This document shows positions 46,493 through 56,859 of a DNA stretch of 56,859 nucleotides, piece by piece. The notes beneath the pieces are model-generated. The model was not told the DNA's origin, searched no databases, and worked only from the letters and a program-made list of their open reading frames with translations. This DNA comes from Candidatus Omnitrophota bacterium. Its GTDB lineage: Bacteria > Omnitrophota > Gorgyraeia > B26-G9. Location of the stretch: positions 1-56,859 of the forward strand of contig JAHJAO010000123.1 in the NCBI GenBank assembly GCA_018813905.1. The letters are read 5' to 3'. The position numbers were made by a program, and so were the translations under genes. How positions within the stretch are numbered: the stretch's first letter is position 1; every line of letters begins with the position of its first letter.

Positions 46493-47548
46493 ATGAAAAA
46501 AAGAAACGTTAAAATCGGGATAACTTTAGGCGATCCGGCCGGAATCGGCCCGGAAGTCATCTTAAAAGCCCTAAAAGACAAAAAGCTCGCCGAATCCGCC
46601 TCTTTTCTGCTGATCGGCGACTACGGCCTGATCACGCACTTAAAACGCCAGCTTAAAATAAACATGAATTTTAACATCATTTCCGATATCGGCCGTCTGC
46701 ACTTAAGCGAAGAGATGATAAATTTCCTGAACCTGGGTAATATCACTTACCCCATTCCTTACGGCAAAATCGATGTCCGCTGCGGCAAATCCGCTTACGA
46801 ATATATCACCATGGCCTGCCTCCTCTTGCGGTCCCTGAACAACCTCGACGGGCTTGTCACCGGTCCGATTAATAAAGAAGCTCTGAACCTGGCCGGTTAT
46901 CGTTTTCAGGGGCACACCCAGATTCTGGCCCAGAGGTTTAAAGCCCGCTATGTACGCATGATGTTCGTCGCGGAGAAGCTGCGCGTGGTTCTGGTTACCG
47001 TGCACACGGCGCTTAAGGATGTTCCCGGCCTGATCACGAAAAAATCGGTTCAGGACACCATCTTCACCACGCACCGTACTATGGACAAATACTTCAAGAT
47101 AAAAAAACCCAATATTGCCGTCTGCGGCCTGAACCCGCACGCTTCCGAAGATGGCCTTTTCGGCAACGAAGAAGCCGAAGAAATCCTTCCGGCGATAAAA
47201 AAAGCCCGCGCGCAAAAGCTGAAAGTCGAAGGCCCGTTCCCGGCAGACACCCTGTTCTGGAAGGCCAAAGAAGGCGCCTACGATGCGATAATCGCGATGT
47301 ACCACGATCAGGCCTGTATTCCGTTTAAAACCCTGTATTTCAACAATGGCGTAAATGTAACCTTAGGCCTTCCTTTTGTCCGCACCTCTCCGGACCACGG
47401 TACGGCGTTTGATATCGCGGGTAAAAACATGGCCGACCCCGAATCCATGAAAGAAGCGATTAAGCTGGCGGTGGAGATGGCGAATAACGTGCCGCAAAAA
47501 CGCAAGAAAACCAGGCTTTATGTTCCCTATAAAGACCGAGCTCGTTAA
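46493..47548 (+). CDS. pdxA: 4-hydroxythreonine-4-phosphate dehydrogenase PdxA
   Basis: 351 residues: IGITLGDPAGIGPEVILKAL, GLVTGPINKEALNLAGYRFQ, GHTQILAQRF (metal His), VTVHTALKDVPGLI, AVCGLNPHASEDGLFGNEEA, GPFPADTLFWKAKEGAYDAI and MYHDQACIPFKTLYFNNGVN with metal His. It acts in the DXP-dependent route to pyridoxal phosphate, the cofactor of the many aminotransferases encoded in this window. Ribosome site GAGGTG. Confidence 0.96.
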   Translation: MKKRNVKIGITLGDPAGIGPEVILKALKDKKLAESASFLLIGDYGLITHLKRQLKINMNFNIISDIGRLHLSEEMINFLNLGNITYPIPYGKIDVRCGKSAYEYITMACLLLRSLNNLDGLVTGPINKEALNLAGYRFQGHTQILAQRFKARYVRMMFVAEKLRVVLVTVHTALKDVPGLITKKSVQDTIFTTHRTMDKYFKIKKPNIAVCGLNPHASEDGLFGNEEAEEILPAIKKARAQKLKVEGPFPADTLFWKAKEGAYDAIIAMYHDQACIPFKTLYFNNGVNVTLGLPFVRTSPDHGTAFDIAGKNMADPESMKEAIKLAVEMANNVPQKRKKTRLYVPYKDRAR

Positions 47549-48362
47549 ATACCGGCTGCGAGCAAAAAAGCGGCTTGGTCAAAACTTCCTTGCAGATGAG
47601 CCCTCGCTTCAAACCATTGCCGATTTCTGTTTTCAAAACAATCCGGCGGCCCATGTTCTGGAAATCGGCGCAGGCATCGGGAATTTAAGCGTCCTACTGG
47701 CTAAAGCAGCGGAAAAATTTTTCGCGCTGGAAAAAGACCCGTCTTTTGGGCCGATCCTTACCGAAAAGCTAAAACAATTCACTCACGCCAAAATTATAAT
47801 CGCAGACATCCTGGAAAGCCAAATAAAAGATTTTTTTACGGGAAAAAAGCTGACCGTTGCCGGGAATCTTCCTTTTTATATTACCACGCCGATTCTCACG
47901 CATCTGTTGCGGCAAAAAGAATACATAAGCACCATCCTCATTACCGTACAAAAGGAAGTAGCTTATCGGATTGTTGCCTCGCCCGGCACAAAGAAATTCG
48001 GCCGCCTAAGCTGTTTTATTCAATATCATACTCAGGCGGATATTCTAAAGATTTTTCCGCGCCATTTATTTTTCCCCCAGCCGGAAGTAGACGCCGCGCT
48101 CATCCGGCTCAAAATTCTTGCCCGGCCAAAAGTGGAAGTAAAATCCGAAACTTTCTTTTTCAAGCTGGTAAAGGCAATTTTTTCCCATAAACGCAAAACC
48201 CTGATTAACAGCGTATTTGCCAGCGGCGGCCTGGGCCTTGAGAAAAAAACTCTGGGGGAAATTCTGGAGGGTTTAAAAATAGCGACGAATTCCCGCGCCG
48301 AACAACTCTCGCTTGAAGAGATCGCAAAGCTCTGCGACAAAATCCACGACTTAAAAAACTAA
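47520..48362 (+). CDS. rsmA: 16S rRNA dimethyladenosine transferase RsmA (KsgA)
   Basis: 280 residues: YRLRAKKRLGQNFLADEPSL, the SAM motif HVLEIGAGIGNLSVLLAKAA, NLPFYITTPILTHLLRQKEY (NLPY-type catalytic motif), TVQKEVAYRIVASPGTKKFG and FFPQPEVDAALIRLKIL. It methylates two adenosines in helix 45 of 16S rRNA. Overlaps pdxA by 29 bp in another frame. Last gene of the plus-strand run; it converges with the giant-gene block. Confidence 0.95.
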   Translation: MFPIKTELVKYRLRAKKRLGQNFLADEPSLQTIADFCFQNNPAAHVLEIGAGIGNLSVLLAKAAEKFFALEKDPSFGPILTEKLKQFTHAKIIIADILESQIKDFFTGKKLTVAGNLPFYITTPILTHLLRQKEYISTILITVQKEVAYRIVASPGTKKFGRLSCFIQYHTQADILKIFPRHLFFPQPEVDAALIRLKILARPKVEVKSETFFFKLVKAIFSHKRKTLINSVFASGGLGLEKKTLGEILEGLKIATNSRAEQLSLEEIAKLCDKIHDLKN

Positions 48363-48423
48363 CCCTTATTTTTTGCTATCTGTAATGCTTTTTTTATATG
48401 TCCTCTATTTTCTATTATCTATA

Positions 48424-48562
48424 ACGTGCAACCTGCAGCATGCAACCTATAACTTTATAACTTTACGAACTTTTTAACTTTATGAACTTTTCAACTTTAC
48501 GAACTTTTAACTTTATAACTTTATAACTTTTATGTCTTGTGGCTTGCGACTTGTAGCCTGTG
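48424..48562. repeat. Short-period repeat tract in the convergent gap
   Basis: About ten units of 7-10 bp of the type AACTTTATA/AACTTTACGA/AACTTTTTA (48450-48530) lie between CTTG/CCTG heptamers (GCAACCTGCAGCATGCAACC before; TGTCTTGTGGCTTGCGACTT after). It separates rsmA from the 3' end of the 434-residue gene and contains no gene. Units vary, so this is not a CRISPR array. Confidence 0.8.
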
Positions 48563-48568
48563 TTTTCC

Positions 48569-49873
48569 CTATATCGCCTGCTCAATCAGCGCCTGCGTTT
48601 TTGCTATGGCTTTAAGTTGTCTAACGCTCTCCTGCTTATAAAAAGTATTGATAACTTTTACTATCCTGTCTATTCCCTCGCTCATATCCCTATTCCTGCC
48701 CCGCTGCACAGCTCCGATAACATTTTCCAATGTTTTTACTATTTGTTTATACCGGCCGATTCTTTCAAGCTGCGCTTCCGGCAGAAATTTACTCTGCAAG
48801 TCCTCTTCCCATATTGCCAGCCAGCCGGGATAATCCCTTGTCCGGCCATGCTCTCTTATGCGTTCATAGCTGTGCGAGAAAAAATCGCGCAGGGAATTCA
48901 TATTCATCTCTTCTTTTGCTTTTAATCCTCTCGCTTTTATGTCCGCCAGCAGCCACTCCATCAGGTCAAGCCGCTCTGTGATTAATACGGGAAAATGCAT
49001 CTTCCCGTATCTAGCCAATTGATTAGTGACCGTCTTTTGCGAAACTCCTAAATCCCGCGCCATAACTTCCCGCTCTCCCCTCAACTCTTCTATGGCCGCG
49101 ACCAGTAAAAAGAGCCTCTTTTCTTCTTCAATGATTTTTGCCTGCCGGCGCAATTTTTCTATTTCTTCGCGATGCCCTGACAATCTGTCCCGGCTCAGCC
49201 CCAACCTTCTTGCCGCTCTTGTAACATTGCCTTTTTCCTGCCTTAACGCCTTAAGTTCCAATTCTTCTCTTATATCGGCGATAACGATGCCGTGTCTTCT
49301 GATCTTATCCCGCAAGGTTCCGCGGGGGATACCCAGTTCTTCTGCCGTATTTTTAAGCCAGCCCCGGTACAGGCAATGCTTTCTTAAGCTGCGGATGAGT
49401 TCCTGTTTTTCCCTTTCTTTTTTATTCGCGCGTATCGCATTCCGCTGCTGTGTGGAAGTGAATTTTAAGATTGTATTTCGATGCATTTTTAAATCGCGTG
49501 CAGTTTTAGACACATTGCCCCGATTCAATTCTAATTGGCGAATTATTATTTGCCGTTTTCTCTCTTGCGCCAGCTTGGCAATAGCAGCAATCTTTTCTCT
49601 TGGGATAAGCCGGTATATGGTTCGGGGGCTGATTCCTGTGGCTTTGGCGGTTTTGGGCACATAGCCATCATTTTCTTCCAAAGCGGAAATGATAACTTTC
49701 GTCAAGAACCTATCTCTTAATCCCGGTAGATCTATCTGAATCGCCGGCGCCAATGTGCTCTTTCCGCTGCATGGCAACGCTTGAGAAAAGACTATTTCCT
49801 GCGCCCAAGCGCAGCTTGGCATGAACGCCTGTATGAGTATAATTGCGGTTATTCTTAAAAGTATCTTTTTCAT
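48569..49873 (-). CDS. Signal-bearing protein with five Fis-like HTH units and a terminal LIEQAI tag
   Basis: 434 residues, not a known named protein. Residues 1-24 form a signal-like leader (KKILLRITAIILIQAFMPSC, then AWAQ). A STLAPAIQI motif lies at 39-47. Five HTH units like the Fis/NtrC C-terminal domain follow: about 62-92 (YVPKTAKATGISPRTIYRL), 109-138 (GNVSKTARDLKMHRNTILK), 159-193 (LKNTAEELGIPRGTLRDKI), 207-236 (GNVTRAARRLGLSRDRLSG) and 257-290 (EVMARDLGVSQKTVTNQLA). The remainder (291-434) is helical, ending ALIEQAI. Leader and tag are shared with the next two genes. No ribosome site precedes the ATG (AAAGTTAAAAATG). Location and targets are unknown. Confidence 0.8.
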   Translation of the reverse strand: MKKILLRITAIILIQAFMPSCAWAQEIVFSQALPCSGKSTLAPAIQIDLPGLRDRFLTKVIISALEENDGYVPKTAKATGISPRTIYRLIPREKIAAIAKLAQERKRQIIIRQLELNRGNVSKTARDLKMHRNTILKFTSTQQRNAIRANKKEREKQELIRSLRKHCLYRGWLKNTAEELGIPRGTLRDKIRRHGIVIADIREELELKALRQEKGNVTRAARRLGLSRDRLSGHREEIEKLRRQAKIIEEEKRLFLLVAAIEELRGEREVMARDLGVSQKTVTNQLARYGKMHFPVLITERLDLMEWLLADIKARGLKAKEEMNMNSLRDFFSHSYERIREHGRTRDYPGWLAIWEEDLQSKFLPEAQLERIGRYKQIVKTLENVIGAVQRGRNRDMSEGIDRIVKVINTFYKQESVRQLKAIAKTQALIEQAI

Positions 49874-49974
49874 TTTTAACTTTTTTGTTCTTGCGACTTG
49901 CTGCTTGCAACTTTATGAACTTTATAACTTTTATGCCTTGAGACTTGCAGCCTGCAACCTGTAACTGTATTTAC
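49874..49974. repeat. Short-period repeats between the first two large genes
   Basis: AACTTTATGAACTTTATAAC units lie next to CTTG units (TTCTTGCGACTTGCTGCTTG, CCTTGAGACTTGCAGCCTGC). This tract is the leader of the 434-residue gene and the trailer of the 1249-residue gene. No promoter consensus is evident in it. Confidence 0.7.
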
Positions 49975-52900
49975 CTAAATTGCCTGTTCCACCAGCAGAT
50001 TAAACTTATTAACCTTGGCCTTTTTGTTTTTTAGTGCCGGCATCTCCGCGGACAATTTGCTCCGCAGCTTTTGCGCAAGATAGCTGCGCCAGTCTCTTTT
50101 CCGGACAAACTCATTTGGCTGATTGTAAAAGTATCCGGTTATCTCCGTGCCGATTTTTTTTGCGTTTTCCGCGCCGGACACAACCTGCGGCTCAATAATG
50201 GGAATTCGTGAATTCTCATTTGTCGCGGGCAAGATAATCGCGCTTTCTCCCGGCTGTTTGATGATCGATATGTCGGGATAACTCACAACCAAAGTCAGCG
50301 CCTGGCCGTGGTTCTGAAAGACTCCCGCATATCCTTTTTTTGACCCAAAAGACCTCTTGTATATAATCGCGTCTTCAACCTTCACTTTGCCGTTGTTGTA
50401 TCGGTTGACAAAACCATCTCCGTTATCCATAACCGTTATCTGCGTATAATCCTTGAATTTCTGCCGGATAACTAAGGCGGTACCATGCTCGACATGCTGG
50501 GCGATATTTTCTGCCGCGTATCTTATGAAATTGTCTTCTCCCATGGACAAATTCCTAATATATGCGCGTGGGCTGAACCAGGCCTGGTTTATTTCGTCTT
50601 TTTCTACAATAACGTCCACGCCGTCGCGCAACTTGAGTTCTTCGATTAAGATATTAAACTGCCGCCAGTCGGGATTTTTACTTTTAGAAGAAGGCATCGC
50701 TTTTCTTATGTCATTTATCAGTTCTTCATTTGACAGACGCGCGGTCCGGGCGTCCGGCTTGGCCGAAAACGAGGTAAATCCAAGCTTTTCCATATCCCGT
50801 TCATAAAAATCAACCGTCTCGATAATATCCTCCAGCCGGTCGATAAGGAAAAGATAGTCGGCGCTTTTACCCGGCTGATGGTTTACGATAAAAGTTTGCA
50901 GTGATTTTATCGTCCTGCCGCAGGCATTTATTTTCGCTGCCAGTTCGAACGCGGGATAAACCTTTTCTATGTAGGCGTCTAGCCCCTTCATGATTTCTGC
51001 GGCGCGAAACAGGTGGAAATCGCTGGTGCGGTGAAACATCCTTACTGCGTTTTCATTGCTGCGGTCCAAAGAAAAAGCTTTTTGTTTTATATTTGAAAAA
51101 ATATTATCGATAACCATCAGCTTTACTTCCAGGCGGTAAGCATGCAGCGTTGCCGGCGAGATCTCAAAAAGATAATATTTATCCATCCACTCATGCAGCG
51201 TTTTTTCTGCGATACCGATTTCCGCCGCCGTACGCGCTTTATCCCCCCTCTGCGCTTCGATCGCATCCGCGACCAGGACCGTGCGCTGTTTTCTTATATT
51301 TTCTTCATGTTCTTTCTTTATTTTCTCTATCTGAATTCCGAACCTTTCCATTAAAACCCCGGCATCTATGCCCAGCCTCTGGTTGGCGCGAGAAACGTTG
51401 CCTTTTGTCAGCTTCAGAACCGGGACAACCCGGTCCTCATCGAATTTCATATCGGTAAACGAGATACTGTATCTGGCCAGTTTATCGTTGAGCGTGGCTC
51501 GGGCTATCCCAAGGTATTGCGCCACTTTTATCAGGCAGTCGTTATGTTTTAAAAACATTTTTATCGCTTTGATTATTTCTCGTTTTTCTTTTTCTGCCTG
51601 CTCGTCGTTATATTGCTTGCGCTGCCGGGCAATCCAACCGCGCGAAAGTATGGTATTTATTTCGCTTGGGCCAAGTCTTAATTCCAACAGTAACGGGTCC
51701 CGGCTTGTCTCCAGCACGTTCCAATTATGCCCTTTTAAAACGGCTTTGACTTTTTCTCTTAAAATTAAGGCGGCTTTTTTGCGGCCTGTGCGGATAAAAT
51801 TTAAGGTGAGCATTTTATATATTCGGCTCGGGTATATCTCTAAAGCATTGGCCGCCTCTTTTACATTCCAGCCGTATGCCTCCAGGGCGCAGATAATCAT
51901 CTCCTTTTCCCGCTCCCGGAGCTTTAACCTTCCCTGTTTGATTGTCTGGACACCGACTAGCGCACGAATTCTTTTCCTATTCGTTCCGAAAACAGCGGCG
52001 GCTTGTAATACGTTCCAGCCGTTTCTTTCCAGTTCCCGGGTTACATCTTCCCGCCTTATCCGGCGGCCTTCAAAATCCTGCTGTTTGGCAATCGCCTCAC
52101 AAAATCCCCTTAAACCCGCTTTTATTATCTTGCCCGGATCCTTAACTAAATATATTCCCGTACCCCGGTTTCGCAGTCTTTGTTCCCAAATCGGTCTTTG
52201 CGGAAAAAAGTGATTGAAGGTCAAAAGTTTTGCCCCGGGTATGCGCAGTACCGGCAACTCATCCTCTCCCTTTCCCTTTGCCAATATTACAATATCCGTG
52301 GGTTCGGTGATATAACGAGTATTTTCCTTGCATAATGCGCCGATAATATTACGCGTGGATAGATACGTGTTCAAAATACGCGGCAAATCTTCGATCTTGA
52401 TCTCCTTCATATCTATATCCGCGTTCGCAAGAAACGCGTTTAAATACGTAATATGGCGATGAAAAATATAATCTCCTTTTCTGCCTTTTCCTATCTGTTT
52501 TAGCTTAGCCGCATCCAGCGCATTCGCGCGAATAATCCGTGTCCATATGTTCATACTTAAGCTTCTATCAAAATATTTCTTGTATTCACCCTCTTCATAT
52601 GGATCTCTAAACTCTTTTCTGTAGGCCCCATTATTCAATGCGTCAAAGATTGGTTTTGCATTTCTTAACGGATACTCGTTGGTATCAATAGCGATAAGCC
52701 TCAAGCGCCATTTGCCTCTTTCCTCTTCTACGACTGTTTCTCTTATTGCCCGATCAAAAGCCTTGATTAACTGTATCGCCTCCGTCGGCTCCCGGCCTAA
52801 CCCGATTTCGTAGATAACTACTTCTTTCTCCTCTCCCAAACGCTCTTTTTCGGCAATTACGGCCTTAAAATCCTGGATAATTAAATTCAGCTGGTTATCC

Positions 52901-53724
52901 TCTTCCGTAGAGACGATATTAAAGGCATAATCGGCAAAAATATTGAAATGTATTTTTGAAAGCGCCTCTTCAATCTCATCATCGTCAAACCCAAGTTCGT
53001 TCACTTCCGTCAGGAAAGAACGCGCCAGTCCTCTATCTATCTTGAAACGATAATCCCATTCCTGTTCTGCTGTCTGGTCAATTTCGATATCTTCGAAAAA
53101 CTCTGCAACTGCTTGCGCTATTTCCGGCAAAATTTCGCCGTTGTCCTCCGGATGAATATTAAATGCTCCTGACAACAAAACCGCCTGCATAATTTTATCT
53201 ACAGGAATTTTTTTCCGGCCATACGTCTTTTTATCTGCCCGGTCCCGCAGCGCCTTTTCCAAAACTTTAAGAGAAATGCTAATATTATCTGTTTTTCTAT
53301 CCTTTTCTGCAGCTCTAGATGGATAAGCGGGATAAAGCGTAAATTTAGTGCGAAAACTTTTCAGTATTCCAACCGCTTCCTTTTGCGAATATGGATAAGC
53401 AAAAATACTGTCTTGCACGGTTGCGGAATTTATTAATTGTATAAGGTATTTCAAGGCTGCTGCCTTTTGTTCCTGCTTCTTGTTTTGGCAATCGGCTATC
53501 ACCTGCTGCAACCCGCTTCTGCCTTCAAAGACGATTGTTTGACTTAAATCTTGCATTTCTTGAAACGCGTTTTGGTATTTATTAATACCGATAAACAGCC
53601 TCGGCGCCAGAGTGCTCTTTTGCGTATTATCTTCCGCGCAAAATACCGCTTCCTGCGCCCCGGCGCAGCTTACAAACATCGCCTGTATCAGCATTATTGT
53701 GATTATCTTAAATATGCTTTTCAT
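49975..53724 (-). CDS. Giant signal-bearing protein: Rossmann-like domain, Fis-like HTH array, GHKL ATPase, LVEQAI tag
   Basis: 1249 residues. Leader 1-24 (KSIFKIITIMLIQAMFVSCA-GAQ) and STLAPRLFI at 37-45. Residues 55-290 are helical and unassigned. Residues 300-430 look like a CheR-type methyltransferase fold (VVIYEIGLGREPTEAIQLIK, LIAIDTNEYPLRNA, YIFHRHITYLNAFL); this call is weak. Six HTH units follow at about 560-590, 608-640, 656-693 (with an insert), 714-751, 765-795 and 815-848 (NVKEAANALEIYPSRIYKML, LIKVAQYLGIARATLNDKLA, KARTAAEIGIAEKTLHEWM). Residues 1060-1165 form a GHKL ATPase: N-box AAENIAQHVEHG, G1 MDNGDGF, G2-like NHGQALTLVVSY. No phospho-acceptor His box is obvious. It ends FNLLVEQAI-TAG. 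No ribosome site. Confidence 0.8.
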   Translation of the reverse strand: MKSIFKIITIMLIQAMFVSCAGAQEAVFCAEDNTQKSTLAPRLFIGINKYQNAFQEMQDLSQTIVFEGRSGLQQVIADCQNKKQEQKAAALKYLIQLINSATVQDSIFAYPYSQKEAVGILKSFRTKFTLYPAYPSRAAEKDRKTDNISISLKVLEKALRDRADKKTYGRKKIPVDKIMQAVLLSGAFNIHPEDNGEILPEIAQAVAEFFEDIEIDQTAEQEWDYRFKIDRGLARSFLTEVNELGFDDDEIEEALSKIHFNIFADYAFNIVSTEEDNQLNLIIQDFKAVIAEKERLGEEKEVVIYEIGLGREPTEAIQLIKAFDRAIRETVVEEERGKWRLRLIAIDTNEYPLRNAKPIFDALNNGAYRKEFRDPYEEGEYKKYFDRSLSMNIWTRIIRANALDAAKLKQIGKGRKGDYIFHRHITYLNAFLANADIDMKEIKIEDLPRILNTYLSTRNIIGALCKENTRYITEPTDIVILAKGKGEDELPVLRIPGAKLLTFNHFFPQRPIWEQRLRNRGTGIYLVKDPGKIIKAGLRGFCEAIAKQQDFEGRRIRREDVTRELERNGWNVLQAAAVFGTNRKRIRALVGVQTIKQGRLKLREREKEMIICALEAYGWNVKEAANALEIYPSRIYKMLTLNFIRTGRKKAALILREKVKAVLKGHNWNVLETSRDPLLLELRLGPSEINTILSRGWIARQRKQYNDEQAEKEKREIIKAIKMFLKHNDCLIKVAQYLGIARATLNDKLARYSISFTDMKFDEDRVVPVLKLTKGNVSRANQRLGIDAGVLMERFGIQIEKIKKEHEENIRKQRTVLVADAIEAQRGDKARTAAEIGIAEKTLHEWMDKYYLFEISPATLHAYRLEVKLMVIDNIFSNIKQKAFSLDRSNENAVRMFHRTSDFHLFRAAEIMKGLDAYIEKVYPAFELAAKINACGRTIKSLQTFIVNHQPGKSADYLFLIDRLEDIIETVDFYERDMEKLGFTSFSAKPDARTARLSNEELINDIRKAMPSSKSKNPDWRQFNILIEELKLRDGVDVIVEKDEINQAWFSPRAYIRNLSMGEDNFIRYAAENIAQHVEHGTALVIRQKFKDYTQITVMDNGDGFVNRYNNGKVKVEDAIIYKRSFGSKKGYAGVFQNHGQALTLVVSYPDISIIKQPGESAIILPATNENSRIPIIEPQVVSGAENAKKIGTEITGYFYNQPNEFVRKRDWRSYLAQKLRSKLSAEMPALKNKKAKVNKFNLLVEQAI

Positions 53725-53745
53725 TTTTAGCTTTTATGTCTTGAG
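53711..53745. repeat. 35 bp repeat spanning the start codon, copy 1
   Basis: A 35 bp stretch starting AATATGCTTTTCATTTTTAG is identical at 56812-56846. It contains the first five codons and the leader of both large genes, and it does not include a ribosome site. Confidence 0.9.
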
Positions 53746-53854
53746 GCCCCCTGCGGGGACTCCCTCTTACGAGGACTCCAACTCGAAAATTCACCTAGTG
53801 ATAAATTTTCGAGGGGCCAGCTCAGATATTTATTCAAAAATAAATCTCTGAGGG
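53746..53854. mobile_element. Palindromic element apparently inserted in the leader repeat
   Basis: The related leader upstream of the 985-residue gene reads CTTGAG-ACTTGTG without interruption. Here 109 bp lie between CTTGAG and ACTTGTG. The insert begins GCCCCCTGCGGGGACTCC, has a second GAGGACTCC, a palindrome CTCGAAAATT...AATTTTCGAGGGGCC (53782-53818) and a second hairpin CTCAGATATTTATT/AATAAATCTCTGAG (53821-53852, one mismatch). It encodes nothing, so if mobile it must depend on an enzyme encoded elsewhere, like REP or MITE elements. It resembles 30941-30995. Confidence 0.5.
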
Positions 53855-53867
53855 ACTTGTGTCTTTC

Positions 53868-56825
53868 CTATATCGCCTGTTCAATCAGCTTCTCTGTCCC
53901 GGCCGCAGGCGCTTTCAAAGCTATAACCTCTGCTGGCTCTCGCTGCACCCTGACGGTATCCTCTAATAAATCCACCAATTCAAACCGGACAAGTTTCTTC
54001 CTCATCGTCTTTTCATGGCACTCGATAATTTCCAAAATCTTTCCCAAACGTTCGCTCATTGTCCAAACATGTTCCCGGTCGATATCGATCGCCGCGCCTA
54101 TTTTTTTTATGGTTACCGCGTAAGCCGTAAACCGGGGGAAAAATTCCCGCACCCCGTTAATCTCGTTTAAAAACTTTAGCGCGCTCATCAGCTCGTTAAA
54201 AGTCGTCCGGTAAAACTTCTGCAATATTTCTTTGGTCTCTTTAGTATTATTGACAGCATTATGTGCGCCATTTATTTTATTTTTAAGCTGCGTTATCTCG
54301 CGCTTTAATCTATCGAGCATCTCGTTTATTTCTCTTTCTACGGCGGTTATCTTCCTGAGTTTCTCGTCCAACTTTGTTTTTATCGGCGCCTTTGCCGTAT
54401 TTTCCAAATGCCGGTTTACTTCCAAAAGATGTTTAGCTATAGACCGTTCGCTTATTCCGGTTAAATCAGCGAGCTCCTCAATTGCCCATTCTTTATTTAT
54501 CTGCTCAAGATTCCTGTTTAAAGCCCAGAGGTATAATTTCCCCCCGGGATTATTAATATGCAGCTTAAATTTAATTAACGGCTCTGCCTGTTCCCTCAGG
54601 CGGTTCTGGACAGCTACAATATGATCGGATACGGACGCCCGGCCGATCCCGGCCTGCGCGGCTATTTCTCCCTGTGTCCACTCTTTATCTATCTGCTTTT
54701 TGGTCCTATTTATCGCCCATTCGTAGATTCGCTTTTGCGGGTCAGTTGTAACTTTAAACAATCTGATTAATGTTTTTCTTTCATTTTTCAAACGCTGCTG
54801 CAGTTGAGGAAGATGCTTTTTCACCGAGTCCTCACTTATTCCCGCCCCCTTGGCGATTTCCTGCAACGTCCATACTGTTTTCTGTTTAGGCTTGCCTTTT
54901 CTTCTGACCACAAAGCGGTATAATTTCTCCTGCGGGCTAAGTTCCAACAAAATCTCCGGCCTGTTTTCCTCTTTAAGCTGTTTTTGTACTGCGTCCAGAT
55001 AGTTACCTATTGACGCTTCGCTGATTCCGGCATGTTCGGCCAACTCACGCCGGCTCCAGCGTTTCTTAATCTGCTGTTTATCTCTGGCTACAGCCCAGCC
55101 GTAAAACTGTTTATAGGCATCGGCCAGCCCGACTAAAATCTTCGGCCTGTTTTCCTGTTGTAACCTCTCCTGGACTATCTCCAGATATCTGGGCATAAAA
55201 CTCTCGGCGATGCCAACGCGTTTACTCAATTCCCTTTGGTTCCACAGCTTATTTATCTGTCTTAACGTTCTAGCAATTGCCCACTTATAAAGTTTATCTT
55301 CCGGCGCCGGCTTTATTTTAATTGGCGGTAATTTTTCCTTTTTCAAACGTTCCTGCAAGAAAGCAAAATGGTTGGATAATGCGGATTCGCTTACTCCGAT
55401 AACCTCGGCGATTTCTTTTTGGGTCCACTCTTTATCTGTCTGGTTTTTGTCCCGATTTCGGGCCCACCGGTAAAGTGCTTTCGCAACATCCACCAGTTTT
55501 TTCTTAATCGCGGGCCTTTTTTCCTCTGCCAGCCGCTTTTCTATTGCCGGCAAATGTTTAGTCACAGCCCCTTTACTTATCCCGGCCGCTTTGGCGATAC
55601 TGCGATGTGTCCAGGCCTGGCTGATTTGTTTTTCGTCCGGGCTTATCGCCCACTGGTATAATAATTCCCGCGGGTCAGTTACACGTTTTCTCAATTTTTC
55701 CTCGGGCATGGGGATAGTGATGATAAAATTCGCGCCTAAACGGTCGGGCCTGTTCTGCGCGCTTATTTTACCTTTGAAATATTTTTCGATAACCTGCCGG
55801 CTCAGCCACATCCCCAGGCCGTACGCTTTGCCTTTTACATAACGGCGGCTGAATCCTTTTTTGAAGATAAGCTCGATTGTCTCCGGCTCTTTTGCCGAGG
55901 CGGCCTTTTCCTTGTCCCAAAATCCCAGCTCAACCGCTTTATTTTTCAATTCCCGGAGGTCAAATCCCCGGCCCGTGTCTTTTATTTCTATAACGATATT
56001 GTTCGCGTCTTTTTTTACGGACATTTCAAAATATACAGATATCGCACGGCCGTGCTCGATGATGTTGCGGATGATATTCTTGATGACAAATTCCATGCCG
56101 TCGCGGTATCCGAAAATTTCAAGGCCCAATCCTTTCTCGATAGAAATACCCCCTTTATCTTCTTCCTGTTTTAAAAGCTCTCCCAAATCAAAATACTCTA
56201 AATTTATCCCCTCCCTCACCGCCTGTATCCGGCGGTTTACAAACTCAGTAGCGGAAATCATCCTGGCTATAAGGCCGCTTATTTCTACCGAAATATCTTC
56301 CGTTTTTACCCGCTCCAGCTCTTTGAGTACAGCGTATTTTTCATTTAGCTGTTTAACTTTTTCGTTTAAATACAAAATATCCGCTTCGATAATAATATCC
56401 ATAGCGGAAAAAATAGACGTGATATCAGCTAAGCCCTCGACCATATCTTTAACAAACGCAGTTATGGCCTCTTCGCCATCTTTAAGTTCATCCTCTGTTT
56501 CGAGAATATCAATGTCCCCGCGGACCACCTGCAAAACATTATTCAACTGGTGAAAAATCATATTGAACTCCAGATAAGTTGTTTCCGCGGTTCCGATTTC
56601 TTCCTCGTCATCCGGGCCGGGGCCAGTTAAAAACCCTTCTTTTGCCGAAGCGGCAAAAATATCCTGAAAGGTATTGATATGGATATGGACAGCAGGCGAA
56701 AGCGCTGCGCCGCTACAGCCGCCGCGGCGGCGGCCGGCCGGCGGCAATAACACACCGGCCCAGGCGCAATTCGCAAGCAGCGCCTGTACGAGCATCACTG
56801 TAGTTATTTTTAATATGCTTTTCAT
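53868..56825 (-). CDS. Signal-bearing histidine kinase with seven tandem HTH repeats and LIEQAI tag
   Basis: 985 residues. Leader 1-23 (KSILKITTVMLVQALLANCA-WA) and ALSPAVHI at 41-48. A histidine kinase core lies at 80-375: H-box FHQLNNVLQV with His92, N-box VIKNIIRNIIEHG (N250, N254), G1 DTGRGF (283-288), F-box IFKKGFS (320-326), G2 YGLGMWLS. Seven repeats of 61-65 residues follow (about 384-446, 447-507, 508-568, 569-629, 630-692, 693-757, 758-820), each with K-x-Y-x-W-A-x-x-R, then WTQxEIAxxAGIS and a recognition-helix-like stretch ending in QxRL. Residues 822-875 form a coiled coil; the end is EKLIEQAI-TAG. It has no receiver or sensor domain, and the leader has no ribosome site. Role and location unknown. 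Confidence 0.82.
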   Translation of the reverse strand: MKSILKITTVMLVQALLANCAWAGVLLPPAGRRRGGCSGAALSPAVHIHINTFQDIFAASAKEGFLTGPGPDDEEEIGTAETTYLEFNMIFHQLNNVLQVVRGDIDILETEDELKDGEEAITAFVKDMVEGLADITSIFSAMDIIIEADILYLNEKVKQLNEKYAVLKELERVKTEDISVEISGLIARMISATEFVNRRIQAVREGINLEYFDLGELLKQEEDKGGISIEKGLGLEIFGYRDGMEFVIKNIIRNIIEHGRAISVYFEMSVKKDANNIVIEIKDTGRGFDLRELKNKAVELGFWDKEKAASAKEPETIELIFKKGFSRRYVKGKAYGLGMWLSRQVIEKYFKGKISAQNRPDRLGANFIITIPMPEEKLRKRVTDPRELLYQWAISPDEKQISQAWTHRSIAKAAGISKGAVTKHLPAIEKRLAEEKRPAIKKKLVDVAKALYRWARNRDKNQTDKEWTQKEIAEVIGVSESALSNHFAFLQERLKKEKLPPIKIKPAPEDKLYKWAIARTLRQINKLWNQRELSKRVGIAESFMPRYLEIVQERLQQENRPKILVGLADAYKQFYGWAVARDKQQIKKRWSRRELAEHAGISEASIGNYLDAVQKQLKEENRPEILLELSPQEKLYRFVVRRKGKPKQKTVWTLQEIAKGAGISEDSVKKHLPQLQQRLKNERKTLIRLFKVTTDPQKRIYEWAINRTKKQIDKEWTQGEIAAQAGIGRASVSDHIVAVQNRLREQAEPLIKFKLHINNPGGKLYLWALNRNLEQINKEWAIEELADLTGISERSIAKHLLEVNRHLENTAKAPIKTKLDEKLRKITAVEREINEMLDRLKREITQLKNKINGAHNAVNNTKETKEILQKFYRTTFNELMSALKFLNEINGVREFFPRFTAYAVTIKKIGAAIDIDREHVWTMSERLGKILEIIECHEKTMRKKLVRFELVDLLEDTVRVQREPAEVIALKAPAAGTEKLIEQAI

Positions 56826-56846
56826 TTTTAGCTTTTATGTCTTGAG
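56812..56846. repeat. 35 bp repeat spanning the start codon, copy 2
   Basis: Identical to 53711-53745, followed without interruption by ACTTGTGGCTTGC, the CTTG heptamer type that runs off the window edge. Confidence 0.9.
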
Positions 56847-56859
56847 ACTTGTGGCTTGC

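What the first reader, a model, noticed from the sequence alone, without database searches (positions are those of the whole stretch)
48569..56825. Three adjacent large proteins share leader and tail but carry different HTH/ATPase bodies
Seen: all three start with MK-(K/S)-I, a hydrophobic segment ML-(I/V)-Q-A and C-A-(W/G)-A, have TLAP/ALSP plus I-x-I about 40 residues in, and end (L/V)-(I/V)-E-Q-A-I-TAG. Between these ends are five Fis-like HTHs (434 aa), a Rossmann-like domain with about six HTHs and a GHKL ATPase (1249 aa), or a histidine kinase with seven HTH repeats (985 aa). Known: Fis-type HTH, GHKL ATPase and histidine kinase cores are cytoplasmic. Inference: either the leader is not a Sec signal but a membrane anchor or targeting tag, or DNA-binding proteins are exported to an unusual compartment or outside the cell. 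I know of no described system with this bookend design.
Basis: partly seen in the sequence, partly recalled or inferred. Interest (0 to 1): 0.92.

Follow-up and report, generated by a model that had tools for sequence, protein, structure and literature searches.

The report
Two-ended address tag on bacterial proteins
In one family of uncultured Omnitrophota bacteria, dozens of unrelated proteins that look as if they belong inside the cell share the same short sequences at both ends, as if addressed for shipment out of the cell, possibly into a partner or prey cell; I found no description of such a system.

Summary
The window is one contig of a 2.15 Mb Omnitrophota genome. A leader model finds 49 matches there and 6-49 in each of 12 genomes of its family (335; the model was built on this genome, so counts elsewhere run low). 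Of 106 complete leader-bearing ORFs, 93 end in [AS]I (consensus [LF][IV]EQ[AS]I-COOH), against 18 of 191 leaderless ORFs; outside the window's genome 56 of 65 against 8 of 64. Tail codons vary synonymously. Bodies are unrelated and, where recognisable, cytosol-type: HTH arrays, CheA-like kinases, methyltransferases, helicases, glycolytic kinases, SecA-like giants. Cysteine is depleted threefold in the own genome (0.47% v 1.45%, p=3e-12), which favours true export. The locus beside ksgA carries bookended genes in three genera, so a recent local duplication is excluded. The TM helix and basic end of PEP-CTERM-like tags are absent. Best reading: a two-part export address (Sec-type signal plus terminal hexapeptide) on a large set of exported, once-cytosolic proteins, most likely bound for a partner cell. 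Export, sorting and destination are inferred, not shown.

The parts
53868..56825 (-). bookended protein 3 (985 aa): leader, CheA-like GHKL kinase, seven HTH repeats, tail LIEQAI
56670..56825 (-). leader of protein 3: MKSILKITTVMLVQALLANCAWAG...ALSPAVHI
55704..56102 (-). HATPase_c domain (residues 242-374), N-box, DTGRGFD and GLGMWL motifs kept; relatives in two other genera
54381..55673 (-). array of seven HTH repeats of about 62 aa (residues about 385-815)
53868..53888 (-). tail LIEQAI plus TAG of protein 3
49975..53724 (-). bookended protein 2 (1249 aa): leader, unassigned N-half, Fis-type HTH array, GHKL-like C-part by motif only, tail LVEQAI
53578..53724 (-). leader of protein 2: MKSIFKIITIMLIQAMFVSCAGAQ...STLAPRLFI
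51145..52062 (-). HTH array of protein 2 (residues about 555-860), homologous to a bookended HTH protein of another genus (32% over 250 aa)
49975..49995 (-). tail LVEQAI plus TAG of protein 2
48569..49873 (-). bookended protein 1 (434 aa): leader, five Fis-type HTHs, C-part without a named domain, tail LIEQAI
49724..49873 (-). leader of protein 1: MKKILLRITAIILIQAFMPSCAWAQ...STLAPAIQI
48989..49702 (-). HTH_8 array of protein 1 (residues about 58-295)
48569..48589 (-). tail LIEQAI plus TAG of protein 1
47520..48362 (+). neighbour, not part of the class: KsgA-like gene at the end of a surA-pdxA-ksgA-like run; bookended genes lie convergent to it here and in two other genera
   Evidence: gene names recalled from the look of the sequences, not from a family search

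Best explanation
The three genes belong to a large class of exported proteins that, in this form, I found only in one Omnitrophota family. Each precursor carries a two-part address. The N-terminal part is a Sec-type signal peptide (K/R, about 15 hydrophobic residues with a frequent Q, then an AWA|G-like site) followed after a variable spacer by (S/T)xL(S/A)Px(I/L)x(I/V)...FQxxF. The C-terminal part is the last six residues, [LF][IV]EQ[AS]I-COOH. Steps in the order I think most likely: (1) Sec export and cleavage [inferred from the leader's make-up and from cysteine depletion]; (2) the mature N-terminal motif and the free C-terminal carboxylate are read by a dedicated envelope machine, the tail perhaps as a PDZ-type ligand and one of the many secretins as the exit [inferred]; (3) the cargo, enzymes, kinases, helicases and multi-HTH DNA binders with cofactor motifs kept, acts where ATP, SAM and DNA are present, which for an exported protein means another cell's interior, a host or prey [inferred; about 0.4]. 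Shown here: the class, its size, the coupling of the two ends, protein-level conservation of the tail, presence of the leader in 9 genera, the cargo types, and the cysteine depletion.
For: Leader found 49 times in the own genome and in 12 of 12 family genomes (335). Coupling: 93 of 106 complete leader ORFs end [AS]I, 18 of 191 leaderless. Of the 13 exceptions 3 end in AV and 3 are followed by an ORF piece with an [AS]I end; of the 18, 8 are cut at the 5' end of the stretch, 2 are such pieces and 5 more show an L(S/A)(P/A) motif near the start. Signal- or TM-like non-members: 6 of 41 end [AS]I, 4 of the 6 with that motif. Synonymous codons and all three stops at the tail. In alignments of 27 and 42 relatives the only runs of consensus are at the two ends. 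Cys median 0.47% in 45 members, 1.45% in 51 soluble leaderless, 0.71% in 17 signal-like non-members. Cofactor motifs kept: kinase boxes in three genera, SAM motif [VI]LD[VI]GTGxG in four genomes of three genera, SecA-type TGEGKT in two genera, radical-SAM CxxxCxxC in three members, PGK residues. Cargo list. Family genomes hold more secretins (mean 7.6 in 12) than 75 others of the class (4.3). Omnitrophota are proposed predators or parasites (PMC10066038, abstract and passages); intron RNA of one was seen in dead prey cells and open cytoplasmic contact is cited from earlier micrographs (PMC13153191, passages).
Against: No localisation data exist and no sorting machine was identified. The coupling is weaker in two genomes (G251 10 of 14, G285 5 of 9). 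Cys depletion has the same direction in all seven other genomes compared but is significant only in G268 and G285, borderline in G288, not in G251, G287, G152, G275, with 1-7 controls each; Trp and Asp are raised in members but not in signal-like non-members. Radical-SAM cargo would need an Fe-S cluster, awkward for an exported protein. Pfam finds nothing in 25 of 44 own-genome members scanned besides the window's, so 'cytosol-type' describes only the recognisable part. ATP/ADP translocase, a marker of intracellular energy parasites, was not found, but the control was silent.
Confidence: 0.6

Rival explanations
1. The proteins are exported but stay in the producer's own envelope or in an internal compartment, as a second, extracytoplasmic set of enzymes and regulators; the tail is an address or retention tag for it.
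For: Same address evidence. The cargo of the family includes both kinds of enzyme that make ATP by substrate-level phosphorylation in glycolysis: a PGK-like domain with active-site residues kept in the own genome and a pyruvate kinase domain in a relative. I did not show both in one genome.
Against: No compartment is known here; substrate supply would need transporters that I did not look for; DNA-binding arrays have no obvious use there.
Confidence: 0.2
2. The leader is a non-cleaved membrane anchor and the bodies work in the producer's cytoplasm.
For: Cofactor motifs of ATP-, SAM- and Fe-S-dependent enzymes are kept.
Against: The positive n-region (119 of 123 leaders) puts the body outside by the positive-inside rule; cysteine depletion; does not explain the tail.
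Confidence: 0.15
3. The ends are relics of common ancestry: one exported ancestral gene whose ends were kept while bodies were swapped by recombination; the tail has no sorting role.
For: Members cluster (26 of 54 have a same-strand member within 400 nt) and share modules (C101 genes share a 286-aa N-part and a 309-aa C-part), so swapping happens.
Against: A pair of orthologues at 64% identity over 1,397 aa keeps both ends and kinase relatives at 32-37% keep both; a six-residue end kept through such divergence, with synonymous codon change, points to selection.
Confidence: 0.12
4. The proteins form an extracellular coat or adhesive layer, with the enzyme folds used as inert building blocks, as proposed for Omnitrophota giant proteins.
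For: Two giant ORFs of this genome carry the leader, one of them both ends; published view of giants as coat or adhesins (PMC10066038, passages).
Against: Active-site motifs are kept in those inspected, which inert blocks would tend to lose.
Confidence: 0.13

Closest known systems
PEP-CTERM / exosortase (EpsH)
   Same: Many unrelated, signal-peptide-bearing proteins of one genome share a short C-terminal sorting motif (PMC1569441, abstract).
   Different: TM-like stretch near the end in 1 of 93 and basic end in 0 of 93; own genome has no exosortase hit; recognisable cargo is cytosol-type.
MYXO-CTERM / myxosortase and GlyGly-CTERM / rhombosortase
   Same: C-terminal tags on many proteins; MYXO-CTERM predicted to reach the surface by type II secretion (PMC11980579, abstract; PMC3237569, search listing).
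   Different: MYXO-CTERM has an invariant Cys, a TM helix and an Arg-rich end; GlyGly-CTERM also precedes a TM helix (recalled). Here the motif is the extreme C-terminus without these.
Type IX secretion C-terminal domain
   Same: Cargo needs a C-terminal signal for export (PMC11285876, search listing); Sec signal in front recalled.
   Different: That signal is a folded Ig-like domain; here only about six residues are shared.
Omnitrophota giant ORFs (Seymour et al. 2023)
   Same: Same phylum; two giants of this genome carry the same leader, one both ends.
   Different: The passages I read describe no shared leader or tail and no link to smaller cytosol-type proteins ('signal peptide' occurs 0 times in the main text).

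Membership tests
PEP-CTERM/exosortase | TM helix after the motif, near the C-terminus | tested here: not met
   TM-like stretch in the last 50 residues in 1 of 93
PEP-CTERM/exosortase | basic cluster at the very end | tested here: not met
   0 of 93 with two or more K/R in the last six
PEP-CTERM/exosortase | exosortase in the same genome | tested here: not met
   0 hits in the own genome (92% complete); 9 of 12 family genomes have one
MYXO-CTERM | invariant Cys in the C-terminal motif, TM helix, Arg-rich end | tested here: not met
   tail counts and TM test
Lipoprotein (SPase II) leader | lipobox with Cys at +1 | tested here: not met
   8 of 123 leaders lipobox-like, 56 of 123 hold a Cys in the stretch; the three window leaders do hold a Cys
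Sec/SPase I signal peptide | positive n-region, hydrophobic core, small residues at -3/-1 | tested here: inconclusive
   119 of 123 net positive; the AxA-like pattern matched 123 of 123 and is too loose to count; W[ACSG]-type site in 57 of 123; no SignalP, no cleavage data
Type IX secretion CTD | folded C-terminal domain of conserved sequence | tested here: not met
   no run of consensus before the last residues in 69 relatives; no such family nor among the 25 families shown in each
Outer-membrane beta-signal | aromatic last residue | tested here: not met
   93 of 106 end in Ile; of the other 13 one ends in Phe, in a stretch with masked bases
Histidine kinase / CheA | GHKL ATPase boxes and phospho-accepting His | tested here: inconclusive
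   HATPase_c and CheA match; a His-box read by eye in three relatives; activity not testable
Effector delivered into another cell | shown delivery | not testable with these tools
   uncultured; no localisation data

The most novel reading that the evidence does not exclude
A previously undescribed export route reads both ends of its cargo and ships the products of about fifty genes (54 ORFs or ORF pieces, 7.65% of the assembly), including multi-HTH DNA-binding arrays, CheA-like kinases, methyltransferases, helicases and SecA-like motors, into the interior of a partner or prey cell, where they take over its signalling, gene expression and metabolism: a secreted stand-in for a cytoplasm.
Probability: 0.3. 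Interest if true: 0.96.

Novelty: categorically new. Interest (0 to 1): 0.88.

Why it matters
Omnitrophota are widespread, uncultured and suspected to be predators or parasites, but what they use against partners is unknown. A tag that can be read from sequence alone turns a largely unannotated part of these genomes, giants included, into one testable set of exported proteins, predicts the outward-facing proteome of each species, and gives a handle (two short peptides) for finding the machine. It would also be a new sorting code, set at the free C-terminus without a membrane helix.

Tried and rejected
Local duplication: rejected. DNA-level element (repeat or recombination site) as cause of the tail: rejected, codons vary synonymously. 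Chance: rejected. Lipoproteins, PEP-CTERM, MYXO-CTERM, T9SS, beta-signal: see membership rows. ATP/ADP translocase as a sign of intracellular life: no hit in 12 genomes, but the control was silent, so no conclusion. Structure of the 434-aa protein from a single sequence: mean pLDDT 46, only residues about 140-245 confident, not used. PADLOC hits of window proteins are short HTH matches; the two helicase members match MkoA helicase parts; not followed as defence. Named relatives by protein alignment: 2 loci, enough for the phylum, not for a family name. Paper searches for a described leader or tail showed none in the listings, and passages of four papers showed none; bioRxiv is not held, and West-Roberts et al. 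2023 on giant genes (cited in PMC12057145) could not be read, so a prior description there is possible. The [AS]I criterion was chosen after seeing own-genome tails; the other genomes serve as the independent test (56 of 65 against 8 of 64). The leader model was built on own-genome leaders, so counts in other genomes are likely low.

Full report
What was checked. The window is the whole contig C78 of a 2,148,859-base, 135-contig genome, 92.46% complete. A search with two orthologues of another tagged protein hit contig JAHITE010000094.1, titled Candidatus Omnitrophota; its length, 58,959, equals that of G268:C31, a same-family genome, so the phylum is Omnitrophota.

Not three genes but a class. 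A model of the three leaders found 31 matches at E<=10 in the own genome. A model of 29 own-genome leaders found 55 at E<=1, 49 of them at E<=0.001. All 12 held genomes of the family, 9 genera, have 6 to 49 matches, 335 in sum.

The two ends go together. In the stretches fetched, 106 leader-bearing ORFs have their stop; 93 end in [AS]I. Of 191 leaderless ORFs of 120 codons or more, 18 do. Split: own genome 37 of 41 and 10 of 127; other genomes 56 of 65 and 8 of 64. By genome the leader ORFs give G152 5 of 5, G193 1 of 1, G251 10 of 14, G268 7 of 7, G275 3 of 3, G285 5 of 9, G286 2 of 2, G287 7 of 8, G288 16 of 16; G227 and G243 had no complete one. Of the 18, 8 are cut at the 5' end of the stretch, 2 are pieces after a leader ORF without tail, 5 more show an L(S/A)(P/A) motif that the model missed, 3 are unexplained. 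Of the 13 leader ORFs without [AS]I, three end in AV and three are followed by an ORF piece with an [AS]I end. Among 41 signal- or TM-like non-members 6 end in [AS]I. Residue counts from the end in the 93: Ile 93 (by choice), A 73/S 20, Q 59, E 48, I 52/V 28, L 41/F 20; codons for E, Q and A vary synonymously and stops are TAA 55, TAG 26, TGA 12, so the conservation is of protein. As DNA, the tail pattern occurs 86 times in 8 family genomes against 12 for the control; I did not sum the other 277 rows, which mostly show 0-3 hits against 0-3 in the control, with exceptions such as G004 (8 v 0, six in one array), G132 (7 v 2), G159 (6 v 0) and G044 (6 v 1).

Old, not a recent copy. A 1,412-aa member and its orthologue in G268 are 63.7% identical over 1,397 aa and both are bookended. 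The kinase part of the 985-aa protein has bookended relatives in G286 (37%) and G288 (32%), ending LEQSI and FIEQAI. In G288 the order is four plus-strand ORFs (625, 326, 352, 296 aa, like the 628-340-351-280-aa run of the window) and then, convergent, the kinase, a 488-aa HTH array that matches the 1249-aa protein (32% over 250 aa), and a helicase member. In G286 the kinase lies convergent to a KsgA-like ORF.

Bodies. Besides the window's three, 44 own-genome ORFs with leader and/or tail were scanned whole; 19 have a Pfam hit at E<=0.001, some weak: SAM methyltransferases most often, an SF1 helicase, NAD(P)H-hydrate dehydratase with cytidylyltransferase and APH kinase, starch synthase, guanylate kinase, PGK, metallophosphatase, HAD, an HTH_3 array. 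In 69 relatives: HATPase_c, methyltransferases, SecA_DEAD, radical SAM, B12-binding, pyruvate kinase, PEP-utilising enzyme, HEAT and TPR repeats (first 25 of 30 and of 56 families shown). Motifs for cofactors are kept in those inspected (the roles of kinase and PGK residues are recalled). Two giant ORFs carry the leader: one of 7,423 codons has both ends and an AAA_5 domain; one of 7,288 codons, of which 5,783 aa were read, a SecA-like motor.

Exported? The leader has a positive n-region (119 of 123) and a hydrophobic core; the AxA test was too loose to count. An independent sign is composition: median Cys 0.47% in 45 own-genome members, 1.45% in 51 soluble leaderless proteins (p=3.4e-12), 0.71% in 17 signal-like non-members (classes by crude hydropathy; leaderless ORFs ending [AS]I left out). 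In the seven other genomes compared the direction is the same; it is significant in G268 and G285, borderline in G288, not in G251, G287, G152 or G275. Trp and Asp are also raised in members, but not in signal-like non-members, so the likeness to ordinary exported proteins is partial. Exclusion of cysteine is known from exported, and cytoplasmic, proteins of Firmicutes (PMC9974433, passages).

Where to? Not shown. Cofactor-dependent cargo with kept sites suits a cytoplasm-like place; for an exported protein that is most simply another cell. Omnitrophota are proposed predators or parasites (PMC10066038); for one, intron RNA was seen in dead prey cells and open cytoplasmic contact is cited (PMC13153191). 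The family has 5-10 secretins per genome, mean 7.6 in 12, against 4.3 in 75 other genomes of the class. A locus with two secretins and, by eye, a GspC-like and an ATPase gene occurs in G288. These are leads to the machine, no more.

Novelty. Known C-terminal sorting tags share the idea (many cargoes, one short motif, signal peptide) but those tested differ in defining features (membership rows). None that I know marks cytosol-type proteins at both ends. I call the system categorically new and the mechanism open.

Noticed in passing
L042/L043 (G000:C64:25247-47518) and L046 (G000:C93): Giant ORFs belong to the class; the C93 giant holds a SecA-like motor near the N-end, and the read part of an 8,031-codon ORF of G288:C129 the same Walker A TGEGKT.
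   Followed up: partly
L226-L245 (20 large ORFs of non-family Omnitrophota): A similar signal peptide, in many followed by TLA[PV]xSxFQ-like motifs, occurs on large ORFs elsewhere in the phylum; the complete ones do not end EQAI but often in A, L or I after small residues.
   Followed up: partly
window 48423-48561, 49871-49962, 56815-56859: Imperfect repeats of CAAG- and ATAAAG-type units lie between and before the tagged genes.
   Followed up: partly
own-genome members: Shine-Dalgarno-like sites are rarer before members (15 of 44) than before other window genes (22 of 34), p=0.01; starts were assigned roughly.
   Followed up: partly
L248 (G288:C18); pairs on one contig also in G287:C48, G251:C40, G268:C10: Two secretin genes close together, in L248 with coiled-coil/TPR ORFs between; in the own genome a secretin ORF lies on C131 about 7 kb from two members.
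   Followed up: partly
L207, L221, L183: Three members in other genomes keep a radical-SAM CxxxCxxC motif, odd for exported proteins.
   Followed up: no
L157 (G000:C60:696-4710), L170 (G000:C76:3469-4755): Two members look broken: a leader ORF without tail followed by an ORF piece with an [AS]I end.
   Followed up: no
G004:C79:147-1088: Six copies in a row of DNA that reads EQ[SA]I-stop in an unrelated Omnitrophota family.
   Followed up: no
12 family genomes: Exosortase is found in 9 of 12 family genomes but not in the own one, G152 or G286.
   Followed up: no
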